Of a stretch of 64,000 nt of DNA, positions 46,175-53,072 are shown one piece after another. The position numbers and the translations under genes are program-made. The notes beneath the pieces are model-generated. The model searched no databases. It saw nothing but the letters and a program-made list of their open reading frames with translations, and had not been told where the DNA came from. Position 1 is the first letter of the stretch, and the number at the start of each line of letters is the position of its first letter. This DNA is from Pelagicoccus sp. SDUM812003 (GTDB taxonomy: Bacteria; Verrucomicrobiota; Verrucomicrobiia; Opitutales; Opitutaceae): NCBI RefSeq assembly GCF_031127815.1, contig NZ_JARXHY010000007.1, positions 1 through 64,000 of the forward strand. Reading direction: 5' to 3'.

Positions 46175-47326
46175 ATGCGGGCGGGCTTTGGCACTTGTAT
46201 GTTAAGTACCTGTTCCTACAACTGTTATCTATCTGCTGAGAGCCACGTTTTGACTGACACGAAAAAGAGAATACTATTGATCGACGACGACCCTTCGGTC
46301 TGCAGCGCCTTGCTCATGTTGCTGAAGGACGAGTTCGATGCGCACGCTGCTGGCACGGTTAGAGAAGGGGTCGAGCTGTTTGATTCGCTCAATCCGAACG
46401 TGGTGGTCCTGGACCTGCATTTGCCTGATCAGCATGGGCTCGACGCCTTGCGTTCGATCCGACGCATGAATCGTTCGGCCCCGGTTGTGATCTTGACTGG
46501 ATACGCCACTTTGGAGGCGGTCGAGGAATCGATGCGGCTTGGCGCTTCGGACTGCTTGCACAAGCCCTTCGACGCTCTGGCTCTGCGCTCGCGGCTGCGC
46601 GAGCTTTCGAATCTTGACGATGTGCTGGGCCCTGAGGTGGAGGAGTCGAGTGCGGCGTACGGTCGTTTGGAGCCGTCCGACGACAGCTTGGTCGCCTCGT
46701 CCTTTCTCCATGACATCGGAAACCCGCTGACTAGCCTGTCGGCGATTTCCGCCATGATGCAGGAATGCGTGGGCGATGCCCAAAAGTGCGCTCGTCTGGC
46801 GGAGATGATCGACAAGAATGTGGAGTACGCCTCGTCGTTGATCGAGCAATGGCGGGCGTTTGCCGAACCGGAGAACCTGCGCGGAGACTACGCTTCCGCT
46901 GAGGAGATCGCTCAGTGGGCGATCGGTCTGGTTCGCCTGCGAGCGGAGGCCAAGAAGGTGGAGCTGCTTCTCGAGGTGCAATCGCCGCTGGTCAGCCCGC
47001 GCCTGAATCGCTATGCCACGATTCGGATTTTGGTGAACCTGCTGCAGAACGCGATCGAAGCGGTGCCGCGCGAGGCGGGATGGGTGCGCTTTCGAGCAGG
47101 GGAGAGGGATGGCATGGTGGAGTTTAGCGTGAGCGACAACGGAGCAGGCATCGATCCCGCCGTCGGGCAAAAGATATTTCAACCCCGCTACACGACGAAG
47201 AAGAAGGGAACCGGATTGGGGCTGTTCATCGCGCGTCGCATCGTCGACTCAGCCCGCGGCTCGATTTCGCTTTGCTCTCGTCCTGGTCGGGGAACGACAT
47301 TTACCGTACAGCTTCCCGCCATTTGA
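46175..47326 (+). CDS. Receiver-histidine kinase protein (PhcR-like), first gene of signalling operon
   Basis: 383 aa. Receiver domain (~30-145) with IDDDPS, phospho-Asp in VVVLDLHLPD, Thr in ILTGYATLEA and KPFDA. It is followed by a kinase part: phospho-His in SFLHDIGNPLTSLSA, N box LLQNAIEA, SDNGAGID and KGTGLGLFIARRI. No membrane helix. A receiver followed by a kinase output is the unusual layout of Ralstonia PhcR. The start is unsure: ATG 46175, ATG 46199 or TTG 46250 are in frame, the last being close to the receiver. The stop overlaps the methyltransferase ATG by one base (TGATG). Confidence 0.88.
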   Translation: MRAGFGTCMLSTCSYNCYLSAESHVLTDTKKRILLIDDDPSVCSALLMLLKDEFDAHAAGTVREGVELFDSLNPNVVVLDLHLPDQHGLDALRSIRRMNRSAPVVILTGYATLEAVEESMRLGASDCLHKPFDALALRSRLRELSNLDDVLGPEVEESSAAYGRLEPSDDSLVASSFLHDIGNPLTSLSAISAMMQECVGDAQKCARLAEMIDKNVEYASSLIEQWRAFAEPENLRGDYASAEEIAQWAIGLVRLRAEAKKVELLLEVQSPLVSPRLNRYATIRILVNLLQNAIEAVPREAGWVRFRAGERDGMVEFSVSDNGAGIDPAVGQKIFQPRYTTKKKGTGLGLFIARRIVDSARGSISLCSRPGRGTTFTVQLPAI

Positions 47327-48753
47327 TGAGCGCCTCCCAAGATCTAGAGAACGAAAGCCTAATCGTATGTCGCAATAGCCAAGGCACCCAGCTGAGGGCG
47401 ACGCTGATGAGGATGACCCGCTATCTGGTCACCTTCGAGGTCTACAATCCCTACAGCATCCTTCAGCTCTCGGAGGTGCTTGGCGAATTCGAGATCGTCA
47501 TCAACTCCCGTAAGGTCTACCAAGGCAGAGCGATCGTCAGCAACATGGTGAACACCGGACTGGTGCTGGTGTGCGAAGCCACGCTGGACGAAGACAGCTG
47601 GCTGGATGTGGAGCTGCTCTCGCCCACGGCTCAGGTAGAGCGGCTGTCGGACGACTTCGACCGGTTGATCAAGGAATGGGAGAAGGTGGGCAGCATCTCC
47701 GCGGAGCTCAAGATTCTGATATCGGACATCGAGACCTTTCTCACGGACATACGCCGTTGGACGGAGAACATCGAGATGTCGGTGCGTTCGGCCCCGCCAC
47801 CGGAGCGGGATAACTACGAAGTGAAGGTGGTGGAGAAGGTGAACAGTCTGGTGGCGCCCGTCATCGCCGATCAGTTCAAGCGCTTCGAGGAGATAGCGGA
47901 GGAGGTGCCCGAGCAGATCCGCGACATCCACCGAGCGTTTTGCCGGCGCCAGTTGCACCCGTTGCTCCTGTGCGCACCCTTTGTGCATCGAACCTTCGAA
48001 AAGCCCCTGGGCTATGCTGGCGACTATGAAATGGTGAACATGATTCTGCGCGACCCCATGGAAGGAGCGTCGATATTCGCCAAGGTCGTGAATATCCAGT
48101 TTTTGGCGACACCTCCAGCGGAGGGTCATCGAAACCGTATCGATTATTTGCTTACGACCATTTCGAACGAGACGCGTCGCTGCCGGAGCAAGGGCCGACG
48201 GGCGCGCATATTCAATCTTGGCTGTGGACCGGCGAAGGAGGTTCAGCAGTTTCTCGCCAAGGACGAGCTCTGCGAAATGGCGGATTTCGCATTGCTCGAC
48301 TTCAATGAGGAAACCATCACTCGTACGGGGCAGCTGCTGAGGGATTTGAAATCGAGGCATCGCCGCTCGACCTCGATCCGCATGATCCAGCGCTCCGTGA
48401 ACCAGATCCTGAAGGAAGGACCGAGAATCGGCGATGTGCAGGGCGAAGAGGCGGTGTACGACCTGGTGTATTGCGCCGGCCTTTTCGACTACCTTTCGGA
48501 TCGTGTCTGCAAGCGCCTGCTGGAAACGTTCTACAAGATGACCGCTCCGGGAGGGATCGTGGTGGCGACCAATGTGGACGATAGCAATCCCGTGCGCAAC
48601 GTCATGGAATACGTGACGGAATGGCACCTCATTTATCGCAATGCCGAGCAATTCGCGGAGCTCGCTCCTTCCGAGGCGCCCGCTGATAGGGTGAGCGTGC
48701 ACAAGGACGCGTCCGCTGCGAATATCTTTCTGGAGCTTCGCAAGCCGGAGTAA
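47326..48753 (+). CDS. SAM-dependent methyltransferase, PhcB-like, with PilZ-like N-terminal domain
   Basis: 475 aa from ATG 47326, overlapping the previous stop. Residues ~10-95 form a beta-rich PilZ-like domain (RATLMRMTRYLVTFEV ... RAIVSNMVNTGLVLV) without the canonical RxxxR. A helical segment (~100-215) follows, then a class I methyltransferase (~220-475) with SAM motif FNLGCGPAKEVQQF, acidic loop ALLDFNEET and DLVYCAGLFDYL. It resembles proteins annotated as 3-hydroxypalmitate methyl ester (extracellular factor) biosynthesis enzymes. Position between signalling kinases, as with phcB in Ralstonia, supports a role in making a diffusible fatty-acid methyl ester. Substrate is inferred. Confidence 0.72.
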   Translation: MSASQDLENESLIVCRNSQGTQLRATLMRMTRYLVTFEVYNPYSILQLSEVLGEFEIVINSRKVYQGRAIVSNMVNTGLVLVCEATLDEDSWLDVELLSPTAQVERLSDDFDRLIKEWEKVGSISAELKILISDIETFLTDIRRWTENIEMSVRSAPPPERDNYEVKVVEKVNSLVAPVIADQFKRFEEIAEEVPEQIRDIHRAFCRRQLHPLLLCAPFVHRTFEKPLGYAGDYEMVNMILRDPMEGASIFAKVVNIQFLATPPAEGHRNRIDYLLTTISNETRRCRSKGRRARIFNLGCGPAKEVQQFLAKDELCEMADFALLDFNEETITRTGQLLRDLKSRHRRSTSIRMIQRSVNQILKEGPRIGDVQGEEAVYDLVYCAGLFDYLSDRVCKRLLETFYKMTAPGGIVVATNVDDSNPVRNVMEYVTEWHLIYRNAEQFAELAPSEAPADRVSVHKDASAANIFLELRKPE

Positions 48754-48754
48754 C

Positions 48755-51424
48755 ATGCAGCAGGCTCCCTCGATGAAGAAGAGCAGCCTGGACCGCGAAT
48801 ACCGCGAGTACAACAAAGGGCTGCAGTTGGGGACCTCGAAAGTGGCGGCCCTGTTCATCGTCGCATTGATGCCGCTGGGAAGCCTGCTGGACTACTTCGT
48901 CTATCCTGGTCAGCTGGGCTTCTTCCTCGAGTTGAGGCTCTTGTGCTCGGCCATCGCCCTTGCCGGGTGGTGGTTTTTGAAGACGCCGCTTGGAAAGCAC
49001 GTCTATCGGCCCTTCGGGCTTTTCATCTTCCTGCTCCCATCCTTCTTCATCAGCCTGATGGTCTATTTCACCGAAGGCGCCGAATCGCCGTACTACGCGG
49101 GGCTCAATCTTGTGTTCGTGGGGCTCTCCTGGGTGGTGCAAATGTATACTTTGGATACCTTGGTGGCGGTGGCGATTACCTTGCTGATGTATGGCGCGGC
49201 GGTGTATTCAAACGGGAATGCGTCGGAGTCGATATTGTTCAACAATCTCTACTTTCTGGGACTGACTGGCATTATAGTCGTATCCGGAACCTACATACTT
49301 AACCGCATGAAGTTTCGGGAGTTCGTGCTGCGTCACGAGCTCGATCAGAATCGAAGCCAGTTGACGGAATCGAACCAGAAGCTGGTGGAGATGGACAAGG
49401 CGAAGACCAATTTCTTCGCCAACATCAGCCACGAGCTGAGGACGCCGCTCACGCTCTTGATCGGTCCGTTGGATCGGTTGCGAAGCCCTCGGGAGAGCGT
49501 TTCGGAGCGGGAGCGCGACGAGTTGCTCGACATCATGCAGCAGAACGCCATGCGCCTGATGCGCCTGATCAACGACCTGCTTAACTTGGTCCGTCTGGAA
49601 AGCGGTTCATTGAAGCTGCGTCCGGCCGCCATCGATCTGCGTCCCTATTTGGAGGGCATTTGTCGGTCGTTTCTCCCCATGGCCCAGGAGCGGCATCTGG
49701 AGTTTCGTTGGGAAATAGACGACGAAGGTAAGCGGCAGGTTCACCTTGACCAGGACAAGGTGGAGAAGATTCTCCTGAACCTGCTGTTCAACGCCATCAA
49801 GTTCACGCCGCCTGGCGGCAGCATCGTATTGCGGGCCCGCCGAGACGGATCTTTGGTTCGTATCGAAGTGGAGGATACGGGGCAGGGAATCGCTCCCGAG
49901 GAGCTGGCCAGCATCTTCGACCGATTCTGGCAGGCGGAGAGCTCTTCGAACCGGCGCTATCAAGGAGTGGGCATCGGCTTGGCCCTGGTGAGGGACCTTG
50001 CGCGACTGCATGGCGGAAACGTGGAGGCCAGCAGCGAACTAGGATCGGGCACGGTGATGAAGGTCAGCTTGAATGTGGAGCTGGAGCTGCAGCCCGCGCC
50101 CATCGAGGTGAGCGAAGGAGAAGTTCAGGTGGATACGAAATGGCTGGAGCAGCTCTATCGAAGGGCGGAGTTTTTCCCCGCTCATGTGCAGAGCAGAGCC
50201 AACGCGGACAAGGTGACGGAGGAGACGCTCGGTGACGAGGAGGAGCAAACGGGCGATGGCCGCCCGAGAATCCTAGTCGCCGACGACGAACCGGAAATGA
50301 TGCGGTTTTTGCGATCGCAGCTTCGGGGACGGTTCCAGATGGACGAAGCGAGCAACGGCGCCGAAGCGCTTGAGCTGGCCGCTCGACGGAGGCACCACCT
50401 GATCCTGCTCGACTTCATGATGCCGCAGGTCGACGGGATCGAAGCGACGCGGCGCTTGCGGGAGATGCCGAGCCATCGCGGAGTGCCCATCATCATCCTG
50501 ACCGCTCGCATGGACGAAGAATCGAAATTTCAGGCTTTGGACGCTGGAGCGACCGACTTCCTGACCAAACCGTTCTCCTCTACCGAGCTCATGGCCCGCT
50601 GTCGCAATCTCGCTTCGGTGTACGAGCTGCAGCAGCAGATCGAAGATCGAACCAAGCGCTTGGAGGAGGCCCTGGATCTCATAAAGCAAACGGAGACGCA
50701 AATGGTGCAGCAGGCCAAGATGGCCACGCTCGGCCAGCTGAGCGCCGGCTTGCTGCACGAAGTCAACAATCCGCTCAACTACGCCACCGCATCCATTCAT
50801 CTGATACGCAAGCGCCTTGGCAAATCGCCGCATCCGGATCCGGAGCTGATCGAGAAGCCGCTCAGCGACCTGCACGATGGGATCCGGCGCGTCTCCACCA
50901 TTGTCTCCAGCTTGCGGGAGTTCACGCACCCAGATACCACTCGATTCGAGCGAGTCGACTTGAAGGAGGCCATTGCCAACGCCATCCGCTTCGTGCAGAT
51001 CCCCGCTGCGGAGATCAAGCTCACCCAGGAGATGGAGGGAGCGCCGATGATCCGGGGAAACCAGAGCCAGCTGGTGCAGCTGTTCATCAACCTGTTGCAG
51101 AACTCCGTCGACAGTTTGAAGGAGAAAGGCGGCGAAGGACGCGAGATCGCTATCAGCTGCCGCGAGGAGTCGGGACGAGTGTATCTGGTCTTTGGCGACA
51201 ACGGGATCGGGATCTCTCGCGAGGAGCAGACGCGAATTTTTGACGCTTTCTTTACGACGAAGAAGGTTGGACAAGGAGTGGGCTTGGGTCTTAGCATCTG
51301 CCACCGAATAATTCAGCAGCATGAAGGCTCTGTGAGAGTCGAGAGCGAGCCTGGGCAGTGGTGCCGCTTCGCGATCGATTTCCCGGCTTACGAGCGTAAA
51401 AAACCCAATAGTATCCACAAGTAG
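48755..51424 (+). CDS. Six-TM hybrid sensor kinase with receiver and second kinase module (PhcS/CqsS-like)
   Basis: 889 aa. N-terminal membrane domain (~25-185) with about six helices (KVAALFIVALMPLGSLLDYF, LRLLCSAIALAGWWFL, PFGLFIFLLPSFFISLMVYF, NLVFVGLSWVVQMYTL, TLVAVAITLLMYGAAVY, LYFLGLTGIIVVSGTYIL) and no periplasmic domain, as in sensors of lipophilic signals (PhcS, CqsS, LqsS). Then HisKA FFANISHELRTPLTLL, HATPase (LLFNAIKFTP, GVGIGLALV), receiver (VADDEPEMM, Asp in LILLDFMMPQ), coiled coil, and a second kinase core (AGLLHEVNNPLNYA, GVGLGLSICHRI). Start is one base after the methyltransferase stop; the next ATG abuts its own stop. Confidence 0.88.
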   Translation: MQQAPSMKKSSLDREYREYNKGLQLGTSKVAALFIVALMPLGSLLDYFVYPGQLGFFLELRLLCSAIALAGWWFLKTPLGKHVYRPFGLFIFLLPSFFISLMVYFTEGAESPYYAGLNLVFVGLSWVVQMYTLDTLVAVAITLLMYGAAVYSNGNASESILFNNLYFLGLTGIIVVSGTYILNRMKFREFVLRHELDQNRSQLTESNQKLVEMDKAKTNFFANISHELRTPLTLLIGPLDRLRSPRESVSERERDELLDIMQQNAMRLMRLINDLLNLVRLESGSLKLRPAAIDLRPYLEGICRSFLPMAQERHLEFRWEIDDEGKRQVHLDQDKVEKILLNLLFNAIKFTPPGGSIVLRARRDGSLVRIEVEDTGQGIAPEELASIFDRFWQAESSSNRRYQGVGIGLALVRDLARLHGGNVEASSELGSGTVMKVSLNVELELQPAPIEVSEGEVQVDTKWLEQLYRRAEFFPAHVQSRANADKVTEETLGDEEEQTGDGRPRILVADDEPEMMRFLRSQLRGRFQMDEASNGAEALELAARRRHHLILLDFMMPQVDGIEATRRLREMPSHRGVPIIILTARMDEESKFQALDAGATDFLTKPFSSTELMARCRNLASVYELQQQIEDRTKRLEEALDLIKQTETQMVQQAKMATLGQLSAGLLHEVNNPLNYATASIHLIRKRLGKSPHPDPELIEKPLSDLHDGIRRVSTIVSSLREFTHPDTTRFERVDLKEAIANAIRFVQIPAAEIKLTQEMEGAPMIRGNQSQLVQLFINLLQNSVDSLKEKGGEGREIAISCREESGRVYLVFGDNGIGISREEQTRIFDAFFTTKKVGQGVGLGLSICHRIIQQHEGSVRVESEPGQWCRFAIDFPAYERKKPNSIHK

Positions 51425-52684
51425 ATGACAGTCCCTTACGATTATAAGAAGTTTCGCGTTCTCTTCGTCGACGACGAGGAGCAGACGACGGATTTGGTTC
51501 GTGAGTATCTGCTGGATACGTTCGATGTCGTGACGGCTTACGACGCCGAGGAGGCCTGGTCGGCTTTCGAGGAGGCTCCTGATTCCTTCGCCGTCATCGT
51601 GACTGACCAGCGCATGCCTGGTGATCAGGGGACCGATCTCTTAGAGAAGATCCGAGCTTCGCGGCCGCGGACCATCCGCATTCTTTGCACTGCCTACGCT
51701 GACATCGATGCCGCTATCGCGGCGGTGAACGAAGGGGCGATCTACAAATACATCACCAAGCCGGTCGAGACGCCGGAGCTGGAGGTGAACATCATGCGCG
51801 CCATGGAGTTCTTCCTGATCCAGCGAGAGCGCGATCTGCTGATGCGCGAAAAGCTCTCCGCCTTGCAGCGGCTGATGATGACGGATCGGCTGATCAGCCT
51901 GGGGATTTTCGCGGCTGGACTGAACCATCACATGCGCAACGGGCTCACTGCGGTGAAGACCTTTCTCGATCTCGCTCCGCTGAAGCTGCAAAGCGAGAAC
52001 GTCGATCTGGAAAACCTGCGCAATCCGAACTACTGGAACCACTTTTACGCAACGGCTCAGGATTCCATTCAGAAGGTGCTCGAGCTGCTCAAGGAGGTGC
52101 AGGAGATCCCAGAGCCGCCGTCCGTGCCGAACGGGGATGACGTCGATTTGAACGAGGTGATCGCGGCCGCTTTGCAGCGACAGAAAAACGCCCTCGAATC
52201 CCGCTCGATCACGGTGGAGTTCGAACCCGCAGAGGTGTCGCAGATCGCGGTCAACCGCTCCATGATCGACCGGTTTTTCGATTTGATGATCAAGGATGAG
52301 CTCGCGAACTCCAACGAGGGAGGGCGATTCTGCCTCTCTCTGGTGGACGAAGCGGACAGCCAAGGGGTGCAAGGGGTGCGTATCGTGATGGAGGACGATG
52401 GCCCGGGACTCACGGCGAGCAACCTGCAATGCCTGTTTGACCCCTTCTTCACGCGAAACGGCAAGCCGGATCAGTATGGCATCAATCTATTGGCGGCCTT
52501 CTTTCTAGTGCACCATCATTCCGGATCGATCAGCGCTGGAGCCTCGGCGATGGGAGGTGTGCGATTTGAGATCTGGCTGCCGCAGGATCCGGCGTCGATC
52601 CCGGCGCCTCGCGGCGAAGACGCGTTCATGCAGAAGGTCATGGAGGCGGAACGAGCCTGGGAGAAGAAGCTAATTGGGGACTAG
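51425..52684 (+). CDS. Receiver protein with degenerate kinase/ATPase output (PhcQ-like)
   Basis: 419 aa. Receiver (~5-125) with DDEEQT, phospho-Asp in VIVTDQRMPGDQG, Thr in ILCTAYAD and Lys in YITKPVETPE. Output half: helical dimerisation segment with GLNHHMRNGLTAVKTFLDLA (His in H-box position), then an HATPase-like domain with MEDDGPGLTASNLQCLFDPFF and a divergent G2 region (QYGINLLAAFFLVHHHSGSIS). The ATP-binding end is not typical, so it may dephosphorylate or regulate instead of acting as a kinase. ATG directly follows the upstream stop, giving full translational coupling. Layout matches PhcQ of the Ralstonia system. Confidence 0.85.
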   Translation: MTVPYDYKKFRVLFVDDEEQTTDLVREYLLDTFDVVTAYDAEEAWSAFEEAPDSFAVIVTDQRMPGDQGTDLLEKIRASRPRTIRILCTAYADIDAAIAAVNEGAIYKYITKPVETPELEVNIMRAMEFFLIQRERDLLMREKLSALQRLMMTDRLISLGIFAAGLNHHMRNGLTAVKTFLDLAPLKLQSENVDLENLRNPNYWNHFYATAQDSIQKVLELLKEVQEIPEPPSVPNGDDVDLNEVIAAALQRQKNALESRSITVEFEPAEVSQIAVNRSMIDRFFDLMIKDELANSNEGGRFCLSLVDEADSQGVQGVRIVMEDDGPGLTASNLQCLFDPFFTRNGKPDQYGINLLAAFFLVHHHSGSISAGASAMGGVRFEIWLPQDPASIPAPRGEDAFMQKVMEAERAWEKKLIGD

Positions 52685-52694
52685 AGAGCGACAG

Positions 52695-53072
52695 ATGCCA
52701 CAAGCAACGCAAGCCGCAAGCAAGCGCGTGCTGGTTATCGATGACGACCAAGGCGTGCGCGAATCGCTCACCATGCTTTTCGAGCACTACGGCTGGGAGG
52801 TTCTGGCGGTGGAATCGGGAGATATCGTTCTGGAGAGCCTGCGACCGATCGACTACCAACTCGCGGTGGTTGACCACCTGATGGAGGGGGCTGATGGGGT
52901 GGAAGTCATCCGGGAGCTCAAAAACATTTCCACGGCCCCGGTTTTCATGCTGACGGGCTGCGTGGATCCAGCGATTCGAGAGGCGGCCGAACTGGTCGGG
53001 GCGGACCGCTATTTCTCCAAGCCCATCCAAGCATCGGAAATGATCGAGGCTCTGAAGGAGATCTCACGCTAG
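52695..53072 (+). CDS. Single-domain response regulator, last gene of signalling operon
   Basis: 125 aa from ATG 52695 (10 nt after the previous stop; a TTG at 52674 is in frame but overlaps). Receiver only: acidic IDDDQGVRE, phospho-Asp in LAVVDHLMEGADG, Thr in FMLTGCVD and Lys in RYFSKPIQAS. No DNA-binding domain, so it passes phosphate to, or binds, another protein. Equivalent to CheY/Spo0F-like relays. It ends the five-gene operon; no DNA-binding output such as PhcA is encoded in the window. Confidence 0.88.
   Translation: MPQATQAASKRVLVIDDDQGVRESLTMLFEHYGWEVLAVESGDIVLESLRPIDYQLAVVDHLMEGADGVEVIRELKNISTAPVFMLTGCVDPAIREAAELVGADRYFSKPIQASEMIEALKEISR

What the first reader, a model, noticed from the sequence alone, without database searches (positions are those of the whole stretch)
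46175..53072. Phc-like cell-density signalling operon in a verrucomicrobium
Five genes are coupled by 1-nt overlaps or gaps of 0-10 nt: REC-kinase, SAM methyltransferase, six-TM hybrid kinase, REC plus degenerate kinase, and lone REC. The parts correspond to PhcR, PhcB, PhcS and PhcQ of Ralstonia, which make and sense 3-hydroxy fatty acid methyl esters. Seen directly: gene order, domains, coupling. Known: the Phc system and related six-TM lipophilic-signal sensors (CqsS, LqsS). Inferred: that this operon makes and senses its own signal. The order (R-B-S-Q plus extra REC) and the duplicated kinase core in the sensor differ from Ralstonia, and no PhcA-type regulator lies nearby.
Basis: partly seen in the sequence, partly recalled or inferred. 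Interest (0 to 1): 0.8.

Follow-up and report, generated by a model that had tools for sequence, protein, structure and literature searches.

The report
Phc-type lipid-signal operon, new phylum
A bacterial operon carries the core parts of the Cupriavidus/Ralstonia cell-density system that makes and senses a fatty-acid methyl ester, outside the group where that system was described, and cousins of the operon carry their own polyketide synthase right beside the signal-making enzyme.

Summary
The five-gene operon is real. B (47326-48753) is a full-length PhcB homologue (39% over 465 columns to Cupriavidus pinatubonensis PhcB). The six-helix sensor domain of S has one significant relative in that whole genome: PhcS (E 3.3e-15). 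Q and PhcQ are reciprocal best hits over receiver plus linker. R is not a PhcR orthologue, and S carries a kinase-receiver pair that PhcS lacks. In two surveys of the window's phylum, S sits beside B in 29 of 30 other loci and a PhcQ-like gene follows in 27. Unexpected: in 9 of these 30 a type I polyketide synthase lies directly upstream of B. Eight share one full-length design ending in a carrier domain; one is FAAL-ACP-KS-AT-MT-KR-ACP. These loci, not the window's, are nearest to betaproteobacterial Phc in trees of B and of the sensor kinase. The window's genome has no such synthase, so it would, like Ralstonia, use ordinary fatty acids. Best reading: B makes a fatty-acyl methyl ester that S senses. 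Homology and linkage are shown; chemistry, export and cell-density role are inferred. No Ralstonia sequence was fetched (Cupriavidus stood in), and the host's phylum name was not verified.

The parts
46175..47326 (+). R: receiver + histidine kinase (383 aa from the first ATG; true start may lie about 72 nt further on)
   Evidence: found in 6 of 30 other loci, all of the window's genus; not grouped with PhcR
47326..48753 (+). B: PhcB-type SAM methyltransferase, 475 aa
   Evidence: 38.7% over 465 columns to Cupriavidus PhcB; tree; model pLDDT 83.2
47356..47586 (+). B residues 11-87: N-terminal beta domain shared with PhcB (holds R24, which aligns with Cupriavidus PhcB R22)
   Evidence: no Pfam family for 8 of 9 members tried, a chance-level hit for one
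48202..48741 (+). B residues 293-472: Rossmann methyltransferase core with NLGCGPAKE and VYCAGLFDYL
48755..51424 (+). S: 6TM sensor - kinase 1 - receiver - kinase 2 hybrid, 889 aa
48755..49402 (+). S residues 1-216: six-TM sensor domain, PhcS-type
   Evidence: only significant match in the C. pinatubonensis genome is PhcS, E 3.3e-15, 32%; model pLDDT 89.6
49400..50077 (+). S kinase 1 (H226), absent from the PhcS proteins examined
50270..50599 (+). S internal receiver
50672..51409 (+). S kinase 2 (H668 in AGLLHEVNNP; PhcS has the same string at H231)
51425..52684 (+). Q: PhcQ-like receiver + linker + degenerate kinase-like half, 419 aa
   Evidence: reciprocal best hit with PhcQ over residues 12-166
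52695..53072 (+). lone receiver domain protein
   Evidence: last gene of the block in the 6 same-genus loci

Best explanation
The operon is a Phc-type lipid-signalling cassette. [quoted passage not shown] The ester partitions into the membrane and is bound by the six-TM domain of S. Ligand state sets the phosphorylation of kinase 1, which passes phosphate through the internal receiver and the PhcS-type kinase 2 to the soluble receivers Q and the lone REC; R feeds a second input into the same pool. Having no DNA-binding domain, Q acts as PhcQ does, by binding a regulator encoded elsewhere. In a sister group of loci a dedicated polyketide synthase without thioesterase makes the acyl chain and B takes it over. 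Shown: gene order, homology of B, S and Q to PhcB, PhcS and PhcQ, their linkage, and the synthase beside B in sister loci. Inferred: substrate, product, export, ligand, direction of phosphotransfer, target and role in cell density.
For: B versus Cupriavidus PhcB 38.7% over 465 columns; one record of 125 plasmid records matched covers at least 80% of B, a Paraburkholderia plasmid with B, a kinase and two response regulators in a row. S membrane domain: PhcS E 3.3e-15, next match E 0.07. PhcS against the own genome: the two best of 102 places are both in S. PhcQ against the own genome: best of 16 is Q (2.0e-29); Q against the Cupriavidus genome: best of 35 is PhcQ (2.4e-29). S beside B in 29 of 30 other loci, PhcQ-like gene after S in 27 of 30. 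Polyketide synthase upstream of B in 9 of 30; all 5 full-length matches to this synthase in 387 genomes lie directly upstream of B. B tree and kinase-2 tree place betaproteobacterial Phc with the synthase-linked loci. Cupriavidus Phc products are 56-75% identical to those of R. solanacearum GMI1000 (PMC2842291, passage seen, said of the JMP134 strain).
Against: No product, ligand or regulator is shown. No PhcA-type gene lies in the operon; the genome has 11 LysR places and none was tested as PhcA. The window lacks the synthase, and its genome has only two stand-alone ketosynthase-like matches. B is only 39% identical to PhcB, and the nearest solved folds are general methyltransferases acting on varied substrates, the best with TM-score 0.39 by query length. 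The predicted six-TM fold resembles membrane cyclase anchors as much as any receptor, so fold alone does not show ligand binding. One of 30 loci has B with no S nearby (L064). G005, in the same genus, has the synthase type instead of the window type.
Confidence: 0.6

Rival explanations
1. B modifies an acyl lipid that stays in the cell, and S reports membrane or fatty-acid status; the system is a self-monitoring lipid sensor and not cell-to-cell signalling.
For: Six-TM domain with short loops fits a ligand inside the membrane (and PMC4821796 passages); no exporter among the five genes; nothing here shows secretion.
Against: Homology of all three core parts to a system shown to act through a secreted ester (PMC8578825 abstract and introduction).
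Confidence: 0.22
2. The enzyme makes a methyl ester mainly as a secreted product for other organisms, or S listens to esters made by neighbours; self-sensing is secondary.
For: Fatty-acid methyl esters diffuse; Phc systems occur in many soil Burkholderiales (80 loci kept).
Against: B and S are linked in 29 of 30 loci, and the B and kinase-2 trees share their main split, which fits a matched maker and sensor.
Confidence: 0.1
3. B methylates a protein, for instance a partner kinase or receptor, as CheR does, and the operon is a phosphorelay with adaptation by methylation.
For: B is translationally coupled to kinases; in L062 it is fused to a receiver domain.
Against: No CheR family in Pfam or among 50 listed fold matches; whole-length kinship to PhcB; synthase beside B in 9 of 30 loci; a related core follows a carrier domain in an Enterobacter plasmid polyketide synthase.
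Confidence: 0.08

Closest known systems
PhcBSRQ system of Ralstonia and Cupriavidus (3-hydroxy fatty acid methyl ester signalling)
   Same: Methyltransferase with the same N-terminal domain; six-TM sensor with the same kinase and H-box; PhcQ-like receiver; adjacent genes; no DNA-binding output domain in the operon.
   Different: Gene order R-B-S-Q-REC; R not kin to PhcR; S has an extra kinase and receiver; Q has a kinase-like C-terminal half that Pfam does not see in PhcQ; PhcA not identified; about 39% identity for B.
Polyketide synthase-linked B-S-Q loci of the same phylum (L021, L022, L023, L024, L054, L056, L057, L058, L059; found here)
   Same: B and S adjacent in all nine; a PhcQ-like gene after S in eight of nine.
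   Different: Type I synthase directly upstream; no window-type R or terminal REC (for four, for the others); closer to betaproteobacterial Phc in the trees.
CqsS and LqsS six-TM quorum-sensing kinases (Vibrio, Legionella)
   Same: Six-TM anchor with a cytosolic kinase and lipophilic ligands (PMC4821796, passages).
   Different: Their sequences were not compared here; no CqsA/LqsA-type synthase in the operon.

Membership tests
PhcB | Whole-length similarity including the N-terminal domain | tested here: met
   38.7% over residues 10-470; R24, aligned with Cupriavidus PhcB R22, invariant in 40 rows; R22C is an adaptive PhcB mutation outside the methyltransferase domain (PMC6989110, passages; equal numbering assumed)
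PhcB | Makes a 3-hydroxy fatty acid methyl ester | not testable with these tools
   needs chemistry
PhcS | Six-TM sensor domain of the PhcS kind | tested here: met
   E 3.3e-15 to PhcS, next best E 0.07 in the whole genome; model
PhcS | PhcS-type kinase with phospho-accepting His | tested here: met
   kinase 2, 32.5% over 265 columns; LLHEVNNP shared, H668 and H231; H230 reported for strain OE1-1 (PMC11960443, passages)
PhcS | Sensor directly followed by a single kinase | tested here: not met
   kinase 1 and a receiver stand between
PhcQ | Reciprocal best hit | tested here: met
   receiver and linker part only
PhcR | Orthologous receiver-kinase in the operon | tested here: not met
   R is 23% to PhcR, Q's receiver 33%; R kinase does not group with PhcR kinases
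Phc system | LysR regulator PhcA under control | not tested
   11 LysR places in the genome, none compared with PhcA
Phc system | Cell-density dependent output through a secreted ester | not testable with these tools
   needs culture work
CheR or PilZ-linked protein methyltransferase | CheR or PilZ domain | tested here: not met
   (50 rows seen)

The most novel reading that the evidence does not exclude
There is a lineage of quorum-type systems in which a dedicated polyketide synthase builds the acyl chain, a PhcB-type methyltransferase takes it off the carrier as a methyl ester, and a PhcS-type sensor reads it. The betaproteobacterial Phc system would be a branch of this lineage without the synthase, running on ordinary fatty acids, and the window a deeper branch without it.
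Probability: 0.4. Interest if true: 0.8.

Novelty: new variant of a known kind. Interest (0 to 1): 0.62.

Why it matters
A survey limited to Proteobacteria reported the phc cluster as restricted to Betaproteobacteria (PMC10653808, passages). Finding B-S-Q in another phylum widens the known spread of methyl-ester signalling if the function holds. The synthase-linked loci make an open point testable: whether PhcB-type enzymes act on carrier-bound acyl chains, and what chain is made. The FAAL-ACP-KS-AT-MT-KR-ACP synthase of L058 would be expected to give a 2-methyl-3-hydroxyacyl chain (inference from domain order), which is close to the 3-hydroxyacyl chain of the known signals.

Tried and rejected
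R as PhcR: rejected on sequence and kinase tree. S as a fusion of PhcS and PhcR: rejected, because PhcR's receiver is closer to Q and the PhcR kinases form their own distant group, although L055 has S split into a 6TM-kinase and a receiver-kinase gene. N-terminal domain of B as PilZ: no Pfam support in 9 members. All nine synthase loci as one clade of B: rejected (p-AU 7.9e-5, quick tree, long branches present), so the association either arose twice or was lost in between; the different architecture of L058 favours two origins. A second copy of the system in the own genome: the C18 cluster (L147) is a kinase whose N-terminus reads as PAS-like by eye, with no six-TM domain, plus a Q-like gene, without a methyltransferase. 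Phylum by 16S: no 16S found in the assembly. Fold of B: general methyltransferases only. Promoter and terminator scan: promoter-like sites as in shuffles, 2 found against a mean of 1.8; terminator-like sites 11 against a mean of 6.6 (sd 2.6), of no evident use because most lie inside genes. Literature: searches listed no paper whose title or abstract start describes phc genes in this phylum; only listings were seen for most papers.

No R. solanacearum sequence was fetched; Cupriavidus pinatubonensis stands in. In one search only two candidates per genome were scored. The neighbourhood ORFs are mechanical, so negative gaps partly reflect over-long starts.

Full report
Observation. Pfam sees receiver and kinase domains in R, S and Q, a receiver in the last gene and a weak class I methyltransferase in B. 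NCBIfam lists no family for B, and a search of solved-structure sequences gave nothing better than E 0.14. The own genome has one match to B.

What B is. The tblastn search of plasmid records found 125 records, of which one covers at least 80% of B: a Paraburkholderia graminis plasmid at 38.6%, followed by an ATP-binding protein and two response regulators. The 40 records listed besides or including it are otherwise 24-28% identical and partial. Among these is Cupriavidus pinatubonensis HN-2 (L093), whose B-S-R-Q genes lie in the order phcB-phcS-phcR-phcQ. A genome paper on strain JMP134 (there called C. necator) reports a complete Phc system, 56-75% identical to R. solanacearum GMI1000 (PMC2842291, one passage seen). 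Window B is 38.7% identical to L093 PhcB over 465 columns. In PhcB the adaptive mutation R22C lies outside the methyltransferase domain (PMC6989110, passages); Cupriavidus PhcB has R at 22, and the aligned window residue R24 is invariant in 40 rows, 39 of them betaproteobacterial. In a more diverse set of 12 that column is not invariant. The model of B has an N-terminal beta domain, a helical middle and a Rossmann core (pLDDT 83.2).

What S is. The membrane domain was run against the whole L093 genome: three places at E up to 10, PhcS at 3.3e-15 and then 0.07 and 0.75. PhcS run against the own genome gives 102 places, the best two being kinase 2 of S (1.7e-42) and the six-TM plus kinase 1 stretch (6.5e-27). 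The kinase tree (51 rows, quick method, SH-aLRT only) puts kinase 1 of all loci in one clade (95), PhcS kinases with the kinase 2 of the synthase-linked loci and of L055 and L058 (95), and window kinase 2 with its own class (89). So kinase 1 plus receiver is an extra module; L060 lacks it and L055 has it on a separate gene. The six-TM model is confident (pLDDT 89.6); its nearest solved folds are ImcA (E 1.2e-3, TM 0.70 by query length) and the membrane part of adenylyl cyclase 9 (TM 0.61-0.63), with no match at E 0.001 or below. Six-TM anchors of cyclases and of the receptor CqsS have been exchanged experimentally (PMC4821796, passages).

What Q, R and the last gene are. Q and PhcQ are reciprocal best hits, over the receiver and linker. 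R has no PhcR ortholog status; it and the last receiver gene occur only in the 6 same-genus loci among 30. PhcR itself is reduced or missing in some betaproteobacterial loci examined: the best PhcR match is an ORF of 162-206 aa in L012, L065, L073 and L079, and the PhcQ ORF in L116 and L132. Deleting phcR in Ralstonia changed QS-dependent phenotypes little, deleting phcQ much (PMC8578825, abstract and introduction). PhcQ binds PhcA and maintains its stability (PMC13320629, abstract).

Spread in the window's phylum. B was matched in 11 of 57 relatives including the own genome (E <= 1e-5) and in 22 of 387 genomes of the phylum including the own (E <= 1e-20). Leaving out the own genome these give 30 distinct loci. 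S lies beside B on the same strand in 29 of 30 (all but L064) and a PhcQ-like ORF follows S in 27 of 30 (not in L055, L058, L064). In the window's genus 6 of 7 other genomes have the window type; the seventh, G005, has a synthase-linked type whose B is only 39% identical.

The polyketide synthases. In 9 of 30 loci a large gene lies directly upstream of B, 2-60 nt away by mechanical ORFs and overlapping by 29 in L058. Pfam was run on three of the nine: L021 and L024 show KS, AT, DH, ER-like, KR and ACP and no thioesterase; L058 shows AMP-binding, ACP, KS, AT, methyltransferase, KR and ACP (its start is cut by the stretch fetched). The other six are full-length relatives of the L021 protein. In the alignment of the eight, KS, AT, DH, KR and ACP active-site motifs are kept, while the ER cofactor motif GGLG is kept in four (L024, L054, L056, L057) and altered in four (L021, L022, L023, L059). 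A search of 387 genomes of the phylum with the L021 synthase gave 25 places in 21 genomes at E <= 1e-150, two candidates scored per genome; 5 cover nearly the whole query, and all 5 lie directly upstream of B. Of the 20 partial matches one is the L058 synthase; 6 are on other contigs of genomes that have B (for G262 the B contig is only 8.5 kb, so linkage is not excluded) and 13 are in genomes without a B match. The own genome has only two short ketosynthase matches. Outside the phylum, an Enterobacter plasmid synthase ends KS-ACP-methyltransferase, and that end is 27% identical to B residues 180-442.

Descent. In the B tree (51 rows) 18 betaproteobacterial PhcB form one clade, sister to the 8 main synthase-linked B (99/97), with L055 and L058 next (98/99); the window lies with 22 others elsewhere (98/99 for the split). 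L021 B is 46% identical to Cupriavidus PhcB over 460 columns, more than to the window's B (39%). Several rows have long branches, and the nine synthase rows are not one clade (p-AU 7.9e-5). So the synthase was gained twice, or gained once and lost in the Phc branch and in L055; the data do not decide.

Mechanism. The most likely working is synthesis of an acyl methyl ester by B and its sensing by S, with output through Q. Every chemical step is inferred from homology and linkage. The synthases have no thioesterase and are followed at once by B, which suggests that B releases or caps the chain; this is inference. In the window the chain would come from ordinary fatty-acid synthesis.

Verdict. 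The homology claim is strong, the functional claim moderate (0.6). New variant of a known kind. The novelty lies in the phylum, the extra kinase-receiver module in the sensor and above all the synthase-linked sister loci.

Noticed in passing
L021, L022, L023, L024, L054, L056, L057, L059 (upstream of B): Type I polyketide synthase of about 2,100 aa directly upstream of the PhcB-type gene; ER cofactor motif kept in only four of the eight.
   Followed up: yes
L058:1-7581: A different synthase (FAAL-ACP-KS-AT-MT-KR-ACP) directly upstream of B; its start lies beyond the stretch fetched.
   Followed up: partly
L055:9589-12306: The S protein is split into two genes, a 6TM-kinase (485 aa) and a receiver-kinase (395 aa), which shows where its modules part.
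   Followed up: partly
L062:2089-4146: B is fused to an N-terminal receiver domain (685 aa).
   Followed up: no
L060:5858-7219: A short PhcS-like sensor (453 aa) without the extra kinase and receiver, in the window's class.
   Followed up: partly
L147:4380-7283 (own genome, contig C18): A kinase and a Q-like receiver-kinase resembling the S kinase 2 and Q pair, without six-TM domain or methyltransferase.
   Followed up: partly
L022 (G005, same genus as the window): This genome has the synthase-linked type instead of the window type, with B only 39% identical, which suggests replacement or transfer.
   Followed up: partly
L116, L132, L012, L065, L073, L079: Betaproteobacterial phc loci in which PhcR is missing or reduced to a short receiver ORF.
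   Followed up: no
L149:3733-6870 (Enterobacter ludwigii plasmid): Plasmid-borne polyketide synthase whose last domain, after the carrier domain, is a PhcB-like methyltransferase core.
   Followed up: partly
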